The notes under the pieces: generated by a model | Told to the model about the DNA's origin: nothing | Database searches by the model: none | The model's input: the letters and a program-made list of their open reading frames with translations, nothing else | In this document: one piece after another, positions 1 through 63,825 of the stretch | How the letters are laid out: each line of letters opens with the position of its first letter | Position numbering within the stretch: position 1 is the first letter of the stretch | Translations under genes and position numbers: made by a program | Source: Seriola aureovittata | Taxonomy: Eukaryota; Chordata; Actinopteri; Carangiformes; Carangidae | Assembly (NCBI RefSeq): GCF_021018895.1 | Contig: NC_079374.1 | Location: 117,712-181,711, forward strand | Length of the DNA stretch: 64,000 nt | Direction of reading: 5' to 3'

Positions 1-4208
<4,208 letters not shown>

Positions 4209-4990
4209 CACGACACTGCCCGGTAAACACAGAGAAGAAAAACACCGACGAATCCACAGGACGACGACGGGTCCGGTTCGGGTTCAACTCAGGTTTTTGC
4301 GGTTCAAGTCCAGATCCAGGTCCACAAACAGATCCACCGAGTCCCGCTACATGAGCCACAGCCCCGATAATGTAGGTCTGGTCTCCGGTCGGCGTCTCTC
4401 CATCAGGATGCTGACCGACTGAACACTCCCACCTCACACAGGTCCACCCTGGAGCACCGAGCCGCGGGGAACTCTGGGACATGAAGTCCTTCTTCAGCTG
4501 AGTTAAAGAAACAATCACATAAATAAAATAAAACGGTTACAAATAACGATCCTGAATTCAGAACTTCAAGTACCAAAGTAAAAGACATCGTTATACATCA
4601 TGTTTATATGATTGAATAATTATTGATGCTGATCAATAGTTTCATCTTTGCCTGTGATAACGTCATTTATTGATACTTTGATAACTGGGACCAGCACAGT
4701 GACTGTTCTCAGACACGTTGTTGTTTCTATTTACAGACTGAAGAAACAAACAGTCTCAGTCCGTCACTGTCTTTTATTGAAGCGCAGAGTGAACAGGAAG
4801 TGAACTGCCGACTGTCACTTCTTCTTGTCTCCATGGAAACTGCTCCAGAAGAAAACCAACAGAAAAGAATGAAACATGTCGGAGCTTCAGTTCAAACTCT
4901 TCTGATCAGCGTCTGTCTGACTCTGACCCCCCCGCCCCCCGCACACACATTTCATGATATAAAAACTCTGTTACAGCTGCAGATCATCGT
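4209..4990. promoter_or_regulatory. kif5c 5' UTR/promoter region between epc2 3' end and kif5c ATG
   Basis: This 780-bp interval must hold the kif5c 5' UTR and core promoter, because epc2 appears to end at about 4990 and both genes read leftwards. The part next to the ATG (about 4060-4480) is CpG-rich, and the rest (4520-4990) is AT-rich. No TATA box is obvious. The transcription start cannot be placed from sequence alone. Confidence 0.5.
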
Positions 4991-53309: not shown

Positions 53310-54682
53310 AGTGTTACCTTGTCGTGGAAGGCGGTGATGAGCCATAGCTCCATATCCACATTACTTCCTCTCTTCTCGGCTCCAATGAACTGCAGCAGGT
53401 TCTCGTGTCTCATCCCGTTCAGGTTGTAGATCTCAAACTCATTCTGCCACGACTGCTTGTCCTGGAAACAGAGGTCATGAGCAGAGTGTTATGGTTGTGT
53501 TGTTTACTCCCTTGTTTTGTAGTTGTGTTGTTTTTCCTCTCAGTGGTTGCAGCAAAGACTCACAACTGATGAACACAACCTTCATCTGACTGATGCCACA
53601 GTGTGTGTGTGTGTGTGTGTGTGTGTGTCTGAGAGCAAGTGTATTCGATTGAGGTCATGTTGGGTTTACTGATGCTGATTGGCTGAGGACACAGTCAGCC
53701 TCGGGGGGATTAAAGCTGCGAGCCTTAAGTCTAAACACACACACAGCAGTGGGGGAGGTTCGGAACTGAAACCAGGTCTGGACCACAGAACCTTCTCTAC
53801 CAGGCAGAGAGGAAGTGATGTGACTCAACAAAATAAAAGCTGAATAATGAATGTGTTTCTGAACAAACAGCTGTGTCACTTTACGTCCTGATATCATCAT
53901 GACAACCAGGTCACATCTATCCAATCAGGGTCTGTGTTCATATTCAGTCTCTGTAGATCGTGTCGTAAATGTAAATGTTCCTGTACAGATGTTCCTCTAC
54001 AGATGTTCTTGTGCAGATGTTAATGTCTAATGACATCAGTAACTCCTAGACTCTGTTCATCATGTATGAATGGACAGCTGCAGTCACATGATCAATTGTT
54101 TCTCACATTACTTGACATGTGAACAGACAGTTACTGTAACAGAAAGTCAGTACCAGAAACAGTCAGTACAGACCTGTATGGGGAAGATCTTGACAGCCAC
54201 ATATTCACTGAGCAGCTGAGCCTTCCACACGCAGCCGAAGCGCCCCCTGGCTTTGATCTCTAGCAGCTGCAGCGGCTTCTGGCCCAGGATGGGGGAGGGG
54301 GGGAGGGGCCCAGGGTCCTGGAGGATTAACATGGAAACCACAGACTGAGTTTGTGTGTGTTCAGGTCCTACAGACGTGTTCATGTGTGTGTGTGTGTCTG
54401 TGTTTTCAGGTCCTACAGACGTGCTCATGTGTGTGTGTGTGTCTGTGTTTTCAGGTCCTACAGACGTGTTCATGTGTGTGTGTGTTTTCAGGTTCTACAG
54501 ACGTGTTCATGTGTGTGTGTGTTTTCAGGTTCTACAGACATGTTCATGTGTGTGTGTGTTTTCAGGTCCCGCAGATGTGTCCGTGTGTGTGTGTGTTTTC
54601 AGGTTCTACAGACGTGTTCGTGTGTGTGTTCAGGTCCTGCAGACGTGTGTGTGTGTGTTTTCAGGTCCTACAGACATGTTCA

Positions 54683-54716
<34 letters not shown>

Positions 54717-54727
54717 ACAGACGTGTT

Positions 54728-54775
<48 letters not shown>

Positions 54776-55687
54776 ACAGACGTGTTCATGTGTGTGTGTC
54801 CGTGTTTTCAGGTCCTACAGACGTGTTCATGTGTGTGTGTGTGTTTTCAGGTCCTACAGACGTGTTCATGTGTGTGTGTGTGTCTGTGTTTTCAGGTCCT
54901 ACAGACGTGCTCATGTGTGTGTGTGTGTGTCTGTGTTTTCAGGTCCTACAGACGTGTTCATGTGTGTGTGTGTTTTCAGGTCCCGCAGATGTGTCCGTGT
55001 GTGTGTGTGTTTTCAGGTTCTACAGACGTGTGTGTGTGTGTTTTCAGGTCCTACAGACATGTTCATGTGTGTGTGTGTGTGTCTGTGTTTTCAGGTCCTA
55101 CAGACGTGTTCATGTGTGTGTGTCTGTGTGTTCAGGTCCTACAGACGTGTTCATGTGTGTGTGTGTGTCTGTGTTTTCAGGTCCTACAGACGTGTTCATG
55201 TGTGTGTGTGTTTTCAGGTCCTACAGACGTGTTCATGTGTGTGTGTGTTTTCAGGTTCTACAGACATGTTCATGTGTGTGTGTGTTTTCAGGTCCCGCAG
55301 ATGTGTCCGTGTGTGTGTGTGTTTTCAGGTCCTACAGACGTGTTCGTGTGTGTGTGTGTGTGTTTTCAGGTCCTACAGACGTGTTCGTGTGTGTGTGTGT
55401 GTCTGTGTTTTCAGGTCCTACAGACGTGTTCGTGTGTGTGTGTGTGTCTGTGTTTTCAGGTCCTACAGACGTGTTCATGTGTGTGTGTGTTTTCAGGTTC
55501 TACAGACGTGTTCATGTGTGTGTGTGTTTTCAGGTCCTGCAGATGTGTCCGTGTGTGTGTGTGTTTTCAGGTTCTACAGACGTGTTCGTGTGTGTGTTCA
55601 GGTCCTGCAGACGTGTGTGTGTTTTCAGGTCCTACAGACATGTTCATGTGTGTGTGTGTGTGTTTTCAGGTCCTACAGACGTGTTCA

Positions 55688-55719
<32 letters not shown>

Positions 55720-55894
55720 ACAGACGTGTTCATGTGTGTGTGTCCGTGTTTTCAGGTCCTACAGACGTGTTCATGTGTGTGTGTGTGTCTGTGTTTTCAG
55801 GTCCTACAGACGTGTTCATGTGTGTGTGTGTTTTCAGGTACTACAGACGTGTTCATGTGTGTGTGTCTGTGTTTTCAGGTCCTACAGACGTGTT

Positions 55895-55954
<60 letters not shown>

Positions 55955-56043
55955 ACAGACGTGTTCATGTGTGTGTGTCTGTGTTTTCAGGTCCTACAGA
56001 CATGTTCACGTGTGTGTGTGTGTTTTCAGGTACTACAGACATG

Positions 56044-56085
<42 letters not shown>

Positions 56086-56095
56086 ACAGACGTGT

Positions 56096-56148
<53 letters not shown>

Positions 56149-56434
56149 ACAGACGTGTTCATGTGTGTGTGTCTGTGTTTTCAGGTCCTACAGACATGTT
56201 CATGTGTGTGTGTGTGTTTTCAGGTACTACAGACATGTTCACGTGTGTGTGTGTGTGTTTCCAGGTCCTACAGACGTGTTCACGTGTGTGTCTGTGTTTT
56301 CAGATCCTACAGACGTGTTCGTGTGTGTGTGTGTTTTCAGGTACTACAGACGTGTTCATGTGTGTGTGTCTGTGTTTTCAGGTCCTACAGACATGTTCAC
56401 GTGTGTGTGTGTGTTTTCAGGTACTACAGACATG

Positions 56435-56476
<42 letters not shown>

Positions 56477-56509
56477 ACAGACGTGTTCGTGTGTGTGTGT
56501 GTGTGTGTG

Positions 56510-56544
<35 letters not shown>

Positions 56545-56595
56545 ACAGACGTGTTCATGTGTGTGTGTCTGTGTTTTCAGGTCCTACAGACGTGT

Positions 56596-56641
<46 letters not shown>

Positions 56642-59600
56642 CCAGATCCTACAGACGTGTTCGTGTGTGTGTGTGTTTCCAGATCCTACAGACGTGTTCA
56701 CGTGTGTGTCTGTGTTTTCAGATCCTACAGACGTGTTCATGTGTGTGTGTCTGTGTTTTCAGGTCCTACAGATGTGTTCCTGTGTGTGTGTTGACTCTGG
56801 ACTGTGCGACAGTGAAGGGTTAATGTCTGTCTGTGTGTGTTCAGGTCCAGACTCTGAACTATATCTACATGGAGCAAGTTTAACTGTCTCTCTGATCATC
56901 CAATCAGCTCATGGCTCTGCTGCCACTGTCCTCCATCTTCATTGATTACATTAGATTACTGATCAAAATGCAATGAGTTTTAAGAGCGCCCTCTGGTGGA
57001 CCAATCACTGTGTGGATAAACCAGCTGGTCTCTGATGAGACATGTCCAGTCTGAACTGAGCTGTAGAGAGGGCTGATGGGAGATGAAGTCCAGACCTGTT
57101 ACTGACTGCATGCTCAACCTGCTTTGTGACATGCACATGGAGACAACGTCTGTCCATCTGTGCACAAACATCCACATCACAGAGCATAAATAACAACGAA
57201 TAAACAACAGTGGCAGAGACACAGAGACACAGAGTAACAAAATAAAGGCATCTCAGGCTGAACAGGAAAATCAAGATGCAAAAATAAAACAACGGCACTG
57301 ATGAAGCTGAAACGACGAGTTTCTCTTCTTACCTCGATCATAATGTGAAAGGCGTGCTGAGAGAGAGAGAAACATGTTGAGTCAGAACCTCAAAGCTACA
57401 CCTGGGCCTACACCTGGACCTCAGAGTTACACCTGGGCCTACACCTGGACCTCAGAGTTATACCTGGGCCTACACCTGAACCTCAGAACTACACCTGGAC
57501 CTACACTTGAACCTCAGAGTTATACCTGGGCCTACACCTGAACCTCAGAGCTACACCTGGACCTCAGAGCTACACCTGGACCTTAGAGTTATACCTGGGC
57601 CTACACCTGAACCTCAGAGCTACACCTGAACCTCAGAACTACACCTGGACCTACACTTGAACCTCAGAGTTATACCTGGGCCTACACCTGAACCTCAGAG
57701 CTACACCTGGACCTCAGAGCTACACCTGGACCTTAGAGTTATACCTGGGCCTACACCTGAACCTCAGTTACACCTGGGCCTACACCTGAACCTCAGAGCT
57801 ACACCTGGACCTCAGAGCTACACCTGGACCTTAGAGTTATACCTGGACCTACACCTGAACCTCAGAGTTACACCTGAACCTCAGAGCTACACCTGGACCT
57901 TAGAGTTATACCTGGACCTACACCTGAACCTCAGAGTTACACCTGAACCGCAGAGTTATACCTGGGCCTACACCTGAACCTCAGAGCTACTCCTGAACCT
58001 CAGAGCTACACCTGGTCCTACACCTGAACCTCGGAGTTATACCTGGGCCTACACCTGAACCTCAGAGTTACACCTGGGCCTACACCTGGACCTCAGAGTT
58101 ACACCTGGGCCTACACCTGGACCTCAGAGTTATACCTGGGCCTACACCTGAACCTCAGAACTACACCTGGACCTACACTTGAACCTCAGAGTTATACCTG
58201 GGCCTACACCTGAACCTCAGAACTACACCTGGACCTCAGAGCTACACCTGGACCTTAGAGTTATACCTGGACCTACACCTGAACCTCAGTTACACCTGGG
58301 CCTACACCTGAACCTCAGAGCTACACCTGGACCTCAGAGCTACACCTGGACCTTAGAGTTATACCTGGACCTACACCTGAACCTCAGAGTTACACCTGAA
58401 CCGCAGAGTTATACCTGGGCCTACACCTGAACCTCAGAGCTACTCCTGAACCTCAGAGCTACACCTGGTCCTACACCTGAACCTCGGAGTTATACCTGGG
58501 CCTACACCTGAACCTCAGAGCTACACCTGGACCTCAGAGCTACACCTGGACCTACACCTGAACCTCAGAGCTACACCTGGACCTACACCTGAACCTCAGA
58601 GCTCTATCTGGGCCTACACCTGAACCTCAGAGCTACACCTAGGCCTACACCTGAACCTCAGAGCTACACCTAGACCTACACCTGAACCTCAGAGCTACAC
58701 CTGGACCTCAGAGCTACACCTGGACCTACACCTTAACCTCAGAGCTACATCAGGGCCTACACCTTAACCTCAGAGCTACACCTGGGCCTACACCTGAACC
58801 TCAGTTACACCTGGACCTCAGAGCTACACCTGGACCTACACCTGAACCTCAGAGCTACACCTAGACCTACACCTGAACCTCAGAGCTACACCTAGACCTA
58901 CACCTGGGCCTCAGAGCTACACCTGGGCCTACACCTGGACCTCAAAGCTACACCTAGACCTACACCTGAACCTCAGAGCTACACCTAGACCTACACCTGG
59001 GCCTCAGAGCTACACCTGGGCCTACACCTGGACCTCAAAGCTACACCTGGGCCTACACCTGAACCTCAGAGCTACACCTAGGCCTACACCTGAACCTCAG
59101 AGCTACACCTAGACCTACACCTGAACCTCAGAGCTACACCTCGGCCTACACCTGAATCTCAGAGCTACACCTGGACCTATGCCTGGGCGATATGAACAAA
59201 ACCGTTGTCACGATAAAAATTTCCATATCAGACGATATCAATATTTATCACGATAAATGCCTCATCGTTATTTCTTTCAGGTTTAAAGGCTGATTTTTGC
59301 TCCTGAGAGAAAGTTGAAGAAACCAGACAGTCAACTGTGGTTTTTAACTTTTCTATTTAGTCAGAACACGACAAACACTTGCCAAACAGCATAACATTCA
59401 AAAACTCAGAGGCACAAACATTCAAAACATAATCAAATATACACGATTAAAATCAAAATCCTTTTCAGTGTTTTTTGCTCAACAAAGTAAATAGAAAGGT
59501 TCTGCAGTGTGATACAGCATACATGTCACATGATCAGACTGCAAAATAAATAAATAAATAATCAGACAGAGAAGATTTACACTGGGTACTGGCCTGGCGC

Positions 59601-62600
59601 TGGTCAAGGGTCCTCTAACACTTGTTTAGACATGTAGTTTCTTAGTTTCTGTGTGTTCTAACTGGTGATATTATTTCAAATGATGAAACAGGTTTGAGGT
59701 GTTACCTGTTTTTAATGGAACGTTTCTCCGGCACAGTGTGCAGTGCAGATTGCACTGTTTTTTGTCAGACTGTAAAAAACCAAAATATCTCCAAACTACT
59801 GAAGCTGAGTGCCCTCTCTTGTCGACGACATCTTAGTCCTCCGAGCTGCATTCTCCTGTTGTCTGCGGTGTTGCTTATATCCCCTAATCTGTTTTCTCTG
59901 CTGGGCCTACACCTGAACCTACAGACAGCTTTCATTCAGCTGACTACAGTAATATGATGTAGTATATTAATCTGTGGATGACGGGTGTGTGTGTATACAG
60001 CAGTTTAAAAACACCAAAGACGAAAAAGCTCCGCAGAAACACTGAGCAGGTCTCACCTGTGTGGGCACCAGCACAGGTGGGTAGGCCAGTTTGTGGTGAC
60101 GGTACATCCAGAAGGAGAACAGGACTATGGCGGTGACAGCCATGATGGGAACCAGGGAGTACATCAGAGTGGTCAGCACCGGAGGCGGAGACGTCACGGG
60201 TTTGTTCGTCGCTACGGAAATGTACAGCGATATAGAAGTATAAAATAACGACATCACAAACTGTTGACAGCAGAGTTCATTTACAGAAGGGATCAGACAG
60301 GACAGGTGAACAGGCAAACACATGGACAGGTGGAGAGGTGAACAGGTGGACAAGCTGACAGGTGGACAGGTGACCATGTGGACAGGTGAATCTTACTGGG
60401 TATCGGTGACAGGTAGCCTTCGGGGCTGTAGAAGAACTTGTCGTTACACAAAGCACCTTCACAGCAGCAGAAGAAGACTTCAGGAGCATCTTTCTTCTCC
60501 ATACACTCATTCCTGCCAAGAGAGAAAGAGTCAGGTAGGTGTGTGTGTGTGTGTGTGTGATTCTTCTTCACCTGAAGAAAGTCTGTTCTCAGTGTTTCTG
60601 TAGTTCTGATGTCATTCATTATTATTATTCAACAGTTTCAGCAGCTCACTGTTCAACGATAATCAATAATTGATATCATTCATTAACCTGGGCCCATGTG
60701 TGGATTACTGAACAGGTCTACAGAACCCTGGGGCCCAAATGATCAGGGGCCCCTGTACCACAACCTCAATATCAACTGGTTTGATAGTTACAGAGCACAG
60801 AAGACGCAAAGAGACATAAAACTACCACAAAGAGACAGAGACATGAAACCACAACAATGAGACAAAGAGACACGAAACCACCACAATGATACTAAGAGAC
60901 ACAACACCACCACATAGACATAAAGAGACACGAAACCACAACAATGAGACAAAAGGACACGAAACCACCACAAAGACACAACGAGACACAAAACCACCAC
61001 AAAGAGACAAAGCCACCACAAAGACACATTAACCACAACAATGAGACAAAGAGACACGAAACCACAACAATGAGACAAAGAGACACGAAACCACCACAAA
61101 GACACAAAGAGACATAAAACCACCACAAAGACATGAAACCACCACAAAGACACAAAGAGACATGAAACCACCACAAAGAGATAAAAAGACACGAAACCAC
61201 AACGAGACAAAGAGACACGAAACCACCACAAAGACACAAAGAGACATGAAACCACCATAATAAAACAAAGAGACATGAAACCACCACAAAGAGACATGAG
61301 ACCACAACAATGAGACATAGAGACATGAAACCACCAAAGACATAAACAGACATGAAACCACCACAAAGACATGAAGCCACAACAAAGAGACAAACAGACA
61401 TGAAACCACAACAAAGAGACATGAAACCACAACAAACAGACATGAAACCACTACAAAGAGACATGAAACCACCACAAGGACACAAAGAGACACAAAACCA
61501 CCACAAAGAGACAGAGACACAAAACCACCACAAAGACATGAAACCAGAACAATGAGACAAGAGACATGAAACCATCACAAAGACAAAAAGAGACATGAAA
61601 CAACAACAAAGACACAAAGAGACACAAAACCACCACAGAGACATGAAACCACCACAAAGAGACAGATACATGAAACCACCACAAAGAGACAAAAATACAT
61701 GAAACCACAACAATGAGACAAAGAGACACAAAACAACCACAAAGAGACAGAGACATGAAACCACCACAAAGACACAAAGAGACATGAAACCACCATAATG
61801 AGACAAAGAGACACGAAACCACCACAAAGAGACATGAAACCACAACAAAGAGACAAACAGACATGAAACCACCAAAGACATAAACAGACATGAAACCACC
61901 ACAAAGACATGAAGCCACAACAAAGAGACAAACAGACATGAAACCACAACAAAGAGACATGAAACCACAACAAACAGACATGAAACCACTACAAAGAGAC
62001 ATGAAACCACCACAAGGACACAAAGAGACACAAAACCACCACAAAGAGACAGAGACACAAAACCACCACAAAGACATGAAACCAGAACAATGAGACAAGA
62101 GACATGAAACCATCACAAAGACAAAAAGAGACATGAAACCACCATAATAAAACAAAGAGACATGAGACCACAACAATGAGACAAAGAGACACAAAACCAC
62201 CACAGAGACATGAAACCACCACAAAGAGACAGATACATGAAACCACCACAAAGAGACAAAAATACATGAAACCACAACAATGAGACAAAGAGACACAAAA
62301 CAACCACAAAGAGACAGAGACATGAAACCACCACAAAGACACAAAGAGACATGAAACCACCATAATGAGACAAAGAGACACGAAACCACCACAAAGAGAC
62401 ATGAAACCACAACAAAGAGACAAACAGACATGAAACCACAACAATGAAACATGAAACCACTGCAAAGGGACATGAAACCACCACAATTAGACAAAGAGAC
62501 ACGAAACCACAACAAAGACACAAAGAGACACAAAACCACCACAAAGACACAAAACCACCACAGAGACATGAAACCACCACAAAGAGACAGAGACATGAAA

Positions 62601-63825
62601 CCACAACAATTAGACAAAGAGACACAAAACCACCACAAAGACACAAAACCACCACAGAGACATGAAACCACCACAAAGAGACAGAGACATGAAACCACAA
62701 CAAACAGACATGAAACCACTGCAAAGAGACATGAAACCACCACAATGAGACAAAGAGACACTTATCCACCACAAAGAGACATATGAAACCACAACAAACA
62801 GACATGAAACCACCACAAAGACATAAAGAGACAGAAAACCACCACAATGAGACAAACAGACATGAAACCACCACAAAGAGACATGAAACCCCCACAAAGG
62901 GACATGAAAGCACCATAAAGAGAATAAAAGACACAAAACCACCACAAAGACACATAAAACAACGAGACACATAACCACCACAAAGACAGATAGAGACATG
63001 AAACCACCACAAAAAGACATGAAACCACTACAAAGAGCCAAAGAGACACAAAACCACAACAATGACACAAAGAGTCATGAAACCACTACAAAGAGACAAA
63101 GACACACAAAACCACCACAAAGAGACACAAAACTCTGATGTCACCCTCTGTCGGGGACAGAGGGGGTTACTGAGCACCGACAGGTAAACCTCACAGGTGA
63201 GTCTTCAGTCACATGACCTGCAGTAGACTGAGGACTGAGCTGTGAGATCAGTTCATCTCCCCACCCCCACACTACCCTACATCTGATTCCTGTCTCATTA
63301 CCAGCAGCTGAATCAGCTGTGATCAGTTTTGATCAGTTGTGATCAGGTGTGATCAGCTCGTGTCTGCAGTGTATCATGATGTTCAGACTGATACTTAAGG
63401 AAACTTAAAAACAGGAGGATTCTCTATGAAGTTCTGCAGCCTGTTTCTCTTGAGTTTTATTGTGGTGGGACATCAGAGATCATGACATCATCAGGAAGTG
63501 ATGCCACACTGAATCAGATAACCATCTGGTTCAGGTCTGACTCAGGTGGTCTTACTGTGACTGGATGTGGTCTGAAAGAGGACTGACAGTCACCTATCGT
63601 AGCAGTTGACGTCGTCCAGCCAGCAGCCCTGTTTGACCACCTGGACGGCTCCTGAGACATTCTTCCACGTGGCGAAGCAGTGCACCCTCTTATCTTTCTC
63701 CCCAGAGCAGGTGACCACCCCGCTGACGTTCCCCCGCCCCTCAGACGCTGAGGAGGAGGACGAGGATGAAGGGCTGTAGTTGTAGTGGACGCACTTCTGA
63801 GTCTCTGAGCGACCCAGGATGGCAC
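51665..63825 (-). CDS. acvr2a: Activin receptor type-2A (lacks first exon; partial)
   Basis: Type II serine/threonine kinase receptor for activins, myostatin and some BMPs; single-pass plasma membrane protein that phosphorylates type I receptors. Exons: 63594-63825, 60397-60512, 60057-60211, 54174-54317, 53318-53461, 52918-53063, 52704-52818, 52474-52612, 52043-52173, 51665-51859. They join in phase to about 505 codons. The ectodomain keeps ten cysteines of the three-finger fold ([35 protein letters not shown]), with a Ser run after HYNYSP. Transmembrane: [20 protein letters not shown], then [16 protein letters not shown]. Kinase motifs are intact: [36 protein letters not shown]. The end [20 protein letters not shown] matches ACVR2A, not ACVR2B. 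The signal-peptide exon lies beyond 63825. Introns 60.8-63.1, 57.4-59.2 and 54.3-56.8 kb are filled by minisatellites. Confidence 0.96.
52404..52454. repeat. (CA)n microsatellite in acvr2a intron
   Basis: About 25 CA units directly after ACGAGCACA, between kinase exons. Intronic. Confidence 0.9.
52882..52914. repeat. (TG)n microsatellite at donor of acvr2a exon 52918-53063
   Basis: Lies immediately beyond the donor at 52916-52917, so the transcript reads GTACACACACACA after the exon. Confidence 0.85.
53263..53308. repeat. (TG)n microsatellite near donor of acvr2a exon 53318-53461
   Basis: About 23 TG units starting a few bases beyond the donor. Confidence 0.9.
54345..56795. repeat. 2.45-kb TG-rich minisatellite in acvr2a intron (MS1)
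   Basis: Around 50 units of the form TTTTCAGGTCCTACAGACG then TGTTCATG and a (TG)n spacer, 33 to about 80 bp per unit depending on spacer length. Variants include GGTTCTACAG, GGTCCCGCAGATG, GGTACTACAG and AGATCCTACAG. No unit contains a stop in any plus-strand frame, so three overlapping frames of over 800 codons appear; none is a gene. It lies in the intron between the 24-nt microexon and the first kinase exon. On the transcript strand it is CA-rich. Confidence 0.95.
57333..57356 (-). CDS. acvr2a: 24-nt cassette microexon of acvr2a (HAFHIMIE)
   Basis: Between the transmembrane exon (ends phase 0 at 60057) and the first kinase exon (starts phase 0 at 54317) lies a 24-nt exon encoding HAFHIMIE. 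Its acceptor is TTTCTCTCTCTCTCAG and its donor GTAAGAAG, both strong. Inclusion would insert eight residues after ..PPVLVPTQ and before DPGPLPPSP without changing frame. An activin type II receptor isoform with an eight-residue juxtamembrane insertion in neural cells is something I recall from the mouse literature (unverified). The CUCUCU tract at the acceptor is a typical PTBP1-bound element, suggesting tissue-limited inclusion. Confidence 0.7.
57400..59180. repeat. 1.8-kb minisatellite in acvr2a intron (MS2)
   Basis: Units of about 18-21 bp (CCTCAGAGCTACACCTGGA, CCTACACCTGAA and variants) combine into higher-order repeats. A block starting about 57657 recurs almost unchanged about 522 bp later at 58179. 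It starts about 40 bp upstream, on the transcript, of the microexon acceptor. On the transcript strand it is full of AGGTGTAG and TTCAGGTG, which resemble both donors and acceptors. Confidence 0.95.
59172..59900. mobile_element. Possible non-autonomous element after MS2
   Basis: Begins CCTGGGCGATATGAACAAAA with ACGATATCAATATTTATCACG soon after, a style seen at the ends of fish hAT-like repeats that start GGGCGATATG. It extends through AT-rich sequence with no coding region. Its right end is not clear. Confidence 0.35.
60057..60211 (-). CDS. acvr2a: acvr2a transmembrane exon
   Basis: This exon encodes the juxtamembrane Pro/Thr stem ([12 protein letters not shown]), the hydrophobic span [20 protein letters not shown], and the cytosolic stop-transfer YRHHK followed by [11 protein letters not shown]. 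Its phase-0 end allows either the microexon or the first kinase exon to follow directly. Listed apart because it fixes the receptor topology and the splice choice; it is part of the acvr2a gene above. Confidence 0.93.
60800..63130. repeat. 2.3-kb minisatellite in acvr2a intron (MS3)
   Basis: Units of about 15-27 bp built from ACCACCACAAAGA, GACATGAA and GACACAAA. A segment starting about 61327 is repeated at about 61865 (offset 538 bp) with no difference over about 200 bp, and another at about 61652 recurs about 566 bp later. The minus strand is free of stops over long distances, giving spurious frames of up to 436 codons. It occupies the intron between the two ectodomain exons. Confidence 0.95.

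What the first reader, a model, noticed from the sequence alone, without database searches (positions are those of the whole stretch)
57333..57356. Phase-0 24-nt microexon in the acvr2a juxtamembrane region
Strong splice sites flank a 24-nt open segment whose use adds HAFHIMIE between the transmembrane span and the kinase without frame change. Its CUCUCU-rich acceptor suggests PTBP1-controlled, possibly neural, inclusion. If conserved with the mammalian neural isoform I recall, a receptor-signalling switch has been kept despite repeat growth on both sides.
Basis: partly seen in the sequence, partly recalled or inferred. Interest (0 to 1): 0.75.

Follow-up and report, generated by a model that had tools for sequence, protein, structure and literature searches.

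The report
Conserved 8-residue acvr2a receptor microexon
A fish activin receptor gene carries a tiny 24-base optional exon, squeezed between blocks of repetitive DNA, that adds the same eight amino acids found at this spot in squirrel, turtle, frog and many fish; an exon of the same size in the human gene was already known.

Summary
At 57356-57333 (- strand) a 24-nt segment, cag|CACGCC...ATCGAG|gtaaga, lies in phase 0 between acvr2a exon 60211-60057 (ends LVPTQ) and exon 54317-54174 (starts DPGP), adding HAFHIMIE. With a simple splice-site model it is the only 6-30 nt candidate exon in the window, both strands, with both sites this strong. It is not chance: 41 of the 120 listed homologues (448 found) carry HAFHIMIE (30) or a close variant (11); 39 of the 41 have the usual linker before it. 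They include teleosts, frogs, turtle, lizard and ground squirrel; a skate has HAFHIEIE. Two ground-squirrel isoforms differ only by these eight residues. A human ACVR2A microexon adding 24 bp is published as SRRM4-induced (PMC7697094, passages). So the exon is real, old and already known in kind. PTBP1 control is not shown. The best-supported regulator is Srrm4, inferred from human, but the usual UGC is missing here: the nearest upstream starts 596 nt away. A minisatellite reaches to 28 nt from the exon, so local control may have changed. Inclusion in this fish was not tested.

The parts
57333..57356 (-). 24-nt phase-0 microexon, HAFHIMIE
   Evidence: insert present in 41 of 120 listed homologues
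57357..57372 (-). polypyrimidine tract (CU repeat) and AG acceptor
57381..57385 (-). branch-point-like CTGAC, A at 57382, 26 nt before the exon (by eye, against the recalled yUnAy consensus)
   Evidence: inference
57327..57332 (-). donor gtaaga
60057..60211 (-). acvr2a exon with the transmembrane span, ends LVPTQ
54174..54317 (-). acvr2a exon starting DPGP, start of kinase
57385..59179 (.). minisatellite in the upstream intron; on the gene strand 93 of that intron's 95 CAGGT[AG][AT] start inside it
54391..56791 (.). TG-rich minisatellite in the downstream intron
57109..57135 (-). stretch with two GCATG (Rbfox-type motif, recalled) that start 199 and 220 nt downstream of the exon
   Evidence: weak (0.021 of 5000 mononucleotide shuffles, motif and 300-nt span chosen by me)

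Best explanation
This is the fish orthologue of the conserved vertebrate ACVR2A microexon. Inclusion inserts HAFHIMIE into the cytoplasmic juxtamembrane linker, between LVPTQ and DPGP, without changing frame. It most likely is a regulated cassette exon used in neurons and driven by Srrm3/4 (inferred from the human exon), giving a neural form of the activin type II receptor. The insert lengthens the linker between membrane and kinase, adds a short hydrophobic patch, and probably changes a protein contact or receptor assembly there; it has no S, T, Y or K, so it does not itself offer a new site for the usual phosphorylation or ubiquitination. Shown: exon, frame, conservation, two annotated isoforms in squirrel. 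Inferred: neural inclusion in this fish, Srrm3/4 control, effect on signalling.
For: Exact exon anatomy. Insert in 41 of the 120 listed homologues (448 found): 30 HAFHIMIE, 6 HAFHIMVE, 2 HPFHIMVE, 1 each QAFHIMIE, HAFHIEIE, NVFHILME; 39 of the 41 have the usual linker before it. Mean pairwise identity of the insert among these 41 is 91.3%, against 86.4% for the kinase, 84.6% for the linker before it and 66.5% for the ectodomain. Ictidomys isoforms X1 (568 aa) and X2 (560 aa) are identical once the eight residues are taken out. Human ACVR2A: a 196-bp product is joined by a 220-bp one only with SRRM4 (PMC7697094, passages).
Against: No RNA evidence for this species. The SRRM4-type UGC near the 3' splice site (PMC5247714, PMC10250204; passages) is absent; the nearest upstream TGC starts at -596. 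The acceptor is strong, whereas weaker acceptors are described for SRRM4-dependent microexons. The passages of PMC7697094 that I saw give neither sequence nor position of the human microexon, so identity with it rests on the 24-bp size and on the squirrel isoform. 79 of 120 listed homologues lack the insert, 73 of them with linker and DPG joined directly; these may be the other isoform, a paralogue or a lineage without the exon. Two of the 41 (Sparus P0067, the bird P0114) have an irregular sequence before the insert. The identity figures are biased: the 41 were picked with a pattern that fixes F, H and I and limits the first two residues. In only 1 of 6 isoform pairs compared did removal of the eight residues make the two identical.
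Confidence: 0.85

Rival explanations
1. The exon is used, but control here is no longer Srrm4-type: loss of UGC and a strong CU acceptor make it PTBP1-repressed and Rbfox-helped, or nearly constitutive.
For: No TGC starts within 595 nt upstream; CTCTCT three times at the acceptor; two GCATG starting at +199 and +220; acceptor 12.4.
Against: Of 95 microexons conserved between mouse and zebrafish, 42 have the canonical UGC plus UC layout and 44 a similar one, typically with only a UGC or a UC repeat, and the authors still think Srrm4 may regulate these (PMC12626420, passage). CU repeats are ordinary acceptors. Motif statistics are weak. That a UGC was ever present here, and then lost, is not shown.
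Confidence: 0.2
2. Decaying relic: the exon sequence is intact but no longer spliced in because the repeats disturb the introns.
For: The minisatellite runs to 28 nt from the exon and the upstream intron has 95 weak donor-like CAGGT[AG][AT].
Against: All 8 residues, both splice sites and a branch-point-like site are intact; the commonest donor-like forms score 4.1-4.5 and the best GT in the upstream intron 6.9, against 10.9 for the true donor of the preceding exon.
Confidence: 0.07
3. Chance pseudo-exon.
For: None found.
Against: Conservation and annotated isoforms; sole such pair in the window.
Confidence: 0.01

Closest known systems
Human ACVR2A SRRM4-induced microexon (PMC7697094)
   Same: Same gene, 24 nt by product sizes 196 and 220 bp
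   Different: Sequence and position not given in the passages seen; regulation shown by overexpression in HEK293
Annotated vertebrate activin receptor type-2A isoforms with the insert (e.g. Larimichthys crocea X3, Ictidomys tridecemlineatus X1, a Xenopus tropicalis protein)
   Same: Same eight residues at the same junction
   Different: The flanking introns of those species were not available
ActRIIA-N, mouse neural isoform (recalled; not found in the library)
   Same: Recalled as a short cytoplasmic juxtamembrane insertion in neural cells
   Different: Sequence and expression not checked
ACVR2B juxtamembrane splice variants
   Same: Insertions at the same junction in rodents, of 5, 23 and 24 residues (P0148, P0164, P0167), and longer ones in two fish (P0225, P0231)
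   Different: 0 of the 120 listed ACVR2B-query hits carry an HAFHI-like insert; the ACVR2B inserts are unrelated in sequence

Membership tests
Conserved ACVR2A microexon (orthologue) | 24 nt, phase 0, between LVPTQ and DPGP | tested here: met
Conserved ACVR2A microexon (orthologue) | HAFHIMIE-type sequence | tested here: met
   8 of 8 residues identical to 30 of the 41 insert-bearing proteins
Conserved ACVR2A microexon (orthologue) | alternative use (both isoforms from one gene) | tested here: inconclusive
   shown as annotated isoforms in Ictidomys; 5 of 6 pairs compared were not identical after removal, being paralogues, partial or divergent by my reading; no RNA for this fish
SRRM3/4-dependent neural microexons | 3-27 nt and in frame | tested here: met
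SRRM3/4-dependent neural microexons | UGC motif near the 3' splice site | tested here: not met
   nearest upstream TGC starts at -596
SRRM3/4-dependent neural microexons | UC repeat upstream | tested here: met
SRRM3/4-dependent neural microexons | weak 3' splice site | tested here: not met
   12.4, third of 11 acceptors, with recalled weights
SRRM3/4-dependent neural microexons | neural inclusion, loss without SRRM3/4 | not testable with these tools
   needs RNA; a human ACVR2A microexon responded to SRRM4

The most novel reading that the evidence does not exclude
In this fish the growth of a donor-like minisatellite up to the branch point removed an upstream Srrm4 (UGC) context while the exon itself stayed unchanged, so an ancient neural receptor switch was handed to another control (PTBP1/Rbfox or near-constitutive use), a natural test of how a conserved microexon can change its regulator.
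Probability: 0.12. Interest if true: 0.5.

Novelty: already known. Interest (0 to 1): 0.35.

Why it matters
ACVR2A binds activins, BMPs and myostatin-type ligands (recalled). An eight-residue insert kept with little change from skate to squirrel next to the kinase suggests a real, still untested function, probably neural. The fish locus adds a case where the exon survived while its introns filled with repeats and the expected SRRM4 motif is missing.

Tried and rejected
AlphaFold2 on an alignment of 47 homologues (47 of the 120 listed, P0001 first) failed: mean pLDDT 36.1, about 29 around the insert. No structural claim is made and no fold search was run. ACVR2B was searched for the same insert: 0 of the best 120 of 422; for 10 of these 120 my pattern could not cut out the linker, but the motif search covered all 120. 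Paper searches: ActRIIA-N terms gave 0 papers; looser searches (20 of 236 listed; 10 of 24 listed; 15 of 81 listed; 3 of 3 listed) showed no title or abstract start that names it, and I did not open most of those papers. 'ACVR2A' with 'microexon' gave 2 papers, of which I saw passages of one. PMC2788225 (ActRIIA in BMP7 chemotaxis) has no 'splice', 'juxtamembrane' or 'Shoji' in its main text. Two zebrafish microexon papers hold no 'acvr' in their main texts; their supplements could not be read. A chance pseudo-exon was rejected on conservation. Rbfox motifs were counted but are weak. Pfam on two other window ORFs gave nothing.

Full report
What is there. The window holds acvr2a on the - strand. 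Eleven exons were placed, including the microexon: 63825-63594, 60512-60397, 60211-60057, 57356-57333, 54317-54174, 53461-53318, 53063-52918, 52818-52704, 52612-52474, 52173-52043 and 51859-51665 (stop), each with an AG acceptor and, except the last, a GT donor, and one open frame through all. The signal-peptide exon was not found by the tblastn comparison and presumably lies beyond the window end. Among the 120 listed proteins, the closest over 512 residues are Acanthopagrus latus (93%) and Larimichthys crocea (91%), so the source is most likely a percomorph fish (inference).

The microexon. 57356-57333 reads CAC GCC TTT CAC ATT ATG ATC GAG, flanked by tttctctctctctcag and gtaagaag. The upstream intron is 2700 nt and the downstream one 3015 nt. 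With recalled vertebrate splice weights, acceptor and donor score 12.4 and 10.0; no other AG..GT pair of 6-30 nt in the 64 kb on either strand reaches both.

Conservation. A search with the joined receptor, scored on residues 150-240, gave 448 proteins; the best 120 were listed and examined. 41 of 120 carry the insert: 30 HAFHIMIE, 6 HAFHIMVE, 2 HPFHIMVE, and one each of QAFHIMIE, HAFHIEIE (skate) and NVFHILME (Fundulus). The pattern used to find them fixes F, H and I; the final E was free and is the same in all 41. 39 of 41 have the usual linker in front; Sparus P0067 and the bird Empidonax P0114 do not. The 41 include many teleosts, four frogs, a turtle, a lizard and a ground squirrel (names). 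Of the other 79, 73 join the linker directly to the next exon, two have inserts of other sequence at this spot (Nothobranchius P0056, Tetraodon P0057) and four are irregular (P0063, P0072, P0112, P0118). Eleven proteins have LVPTH in the linker and look like a second teleost paralogue (inference, no tree made): five of them have H[AP]FHIMVE (P0032-P0035, P0048), two the odd inserts, four none. Two squirrel isoforms are identical except for these eight residues; the five other pairs compared were not. Conserved cassette use is therefore well supported, though its tissue is not shown here.

The sister gene. 0 of the best 120 hits of an ACVR2B query (422 found) have an HAFHI-like insert. Three rodent ACVR2B proteins (P0148, P0164, P0167) and two fish ones (P0225, P0231) have unrelated inserts at the same junction, in line with recalled ActRIIB variants.

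Regulation. In human HEK293 cells an ACVR2A product 24 bp longer (220 against 196 bp) appears only with SRRM4 (PMC7697094, passages). SRRM4 uses a UGC near the 3' splice site (PMC5247714 and PMC10250204, passages). Here the nearest upstream TGC starts 596 nt away, while a CU repeat is present. This resembles the layout of 44 of 95 microexons conserved between mouse and zebrafish, which are similar to the canonical one but typically have only a UGC or a UC repeat (PMC12626420, passage). PTBP1 control, as first proposed, is possible but has no evidence beyond the CU tract. Two GCATG downstream could serve Rbfox, on weak statistics (0.021 of 5000 shuffles).

Repeats. Arrays lie at 57385-59179 and 54391-56791 and, in the intron between the first two exons of the model, at about 60796-63127. 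The array next to the microexon ends 28 nt before it, at a branch-point-like CTGAC. The upstream intron contains 95 CAGGT[AG][AT], 93 of them starting in the array, and the downstream intron none. The commonest forms are weak as donors (4.1-4.5 against 10.9 for the real one), so I treat them as curious context and not as a mechanism.

Verdict. The exon is real, conserved and already known in kind. What is left open is where it is used in this fish and whether the missing UGC context means that its control has changed.

Noticed in passing
57385-59179: Minisatellite in the upstream intron whose gene strand carries 93 of that intron's 95 CAGGT[AG][AT] donor-like (also E-box-like, recalled) sites; none in the downstream intron; 142 in all on the - strand of the window.
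   Followed up: partly
60796-63127: A third large minisatellite (CAAAGAGACA/CCACCACAAAG units) fills another acvr2a intron.
   Followed up: partly
54257-56945 and 60788-63027: Long stop-free frames of up to 871 aa lie in the minisatellites and read as repeat translations, not as genes.
   Followed up: partly
3765-4283 (-): ORF containing MVDAAECGVCGVKVMCRFRPLNDAE, which resembles the start of a Kif5-type kinesin (recalled); Pfam gave no hit on this short piece. It would fit the KIF5C neighbourhood of ACVR2A in human (recalled).
   Followed up: partly
P0056 and P0057 (fetched proteins): Nothobranchius and Tetraodon proteins have an insert of unrelated sequence at this junction (LSSHVSLQ, VSPTLVFMLQ), possibly a diverged exon in a second teleost paralogue or an annotation slip.
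   Followed up: no
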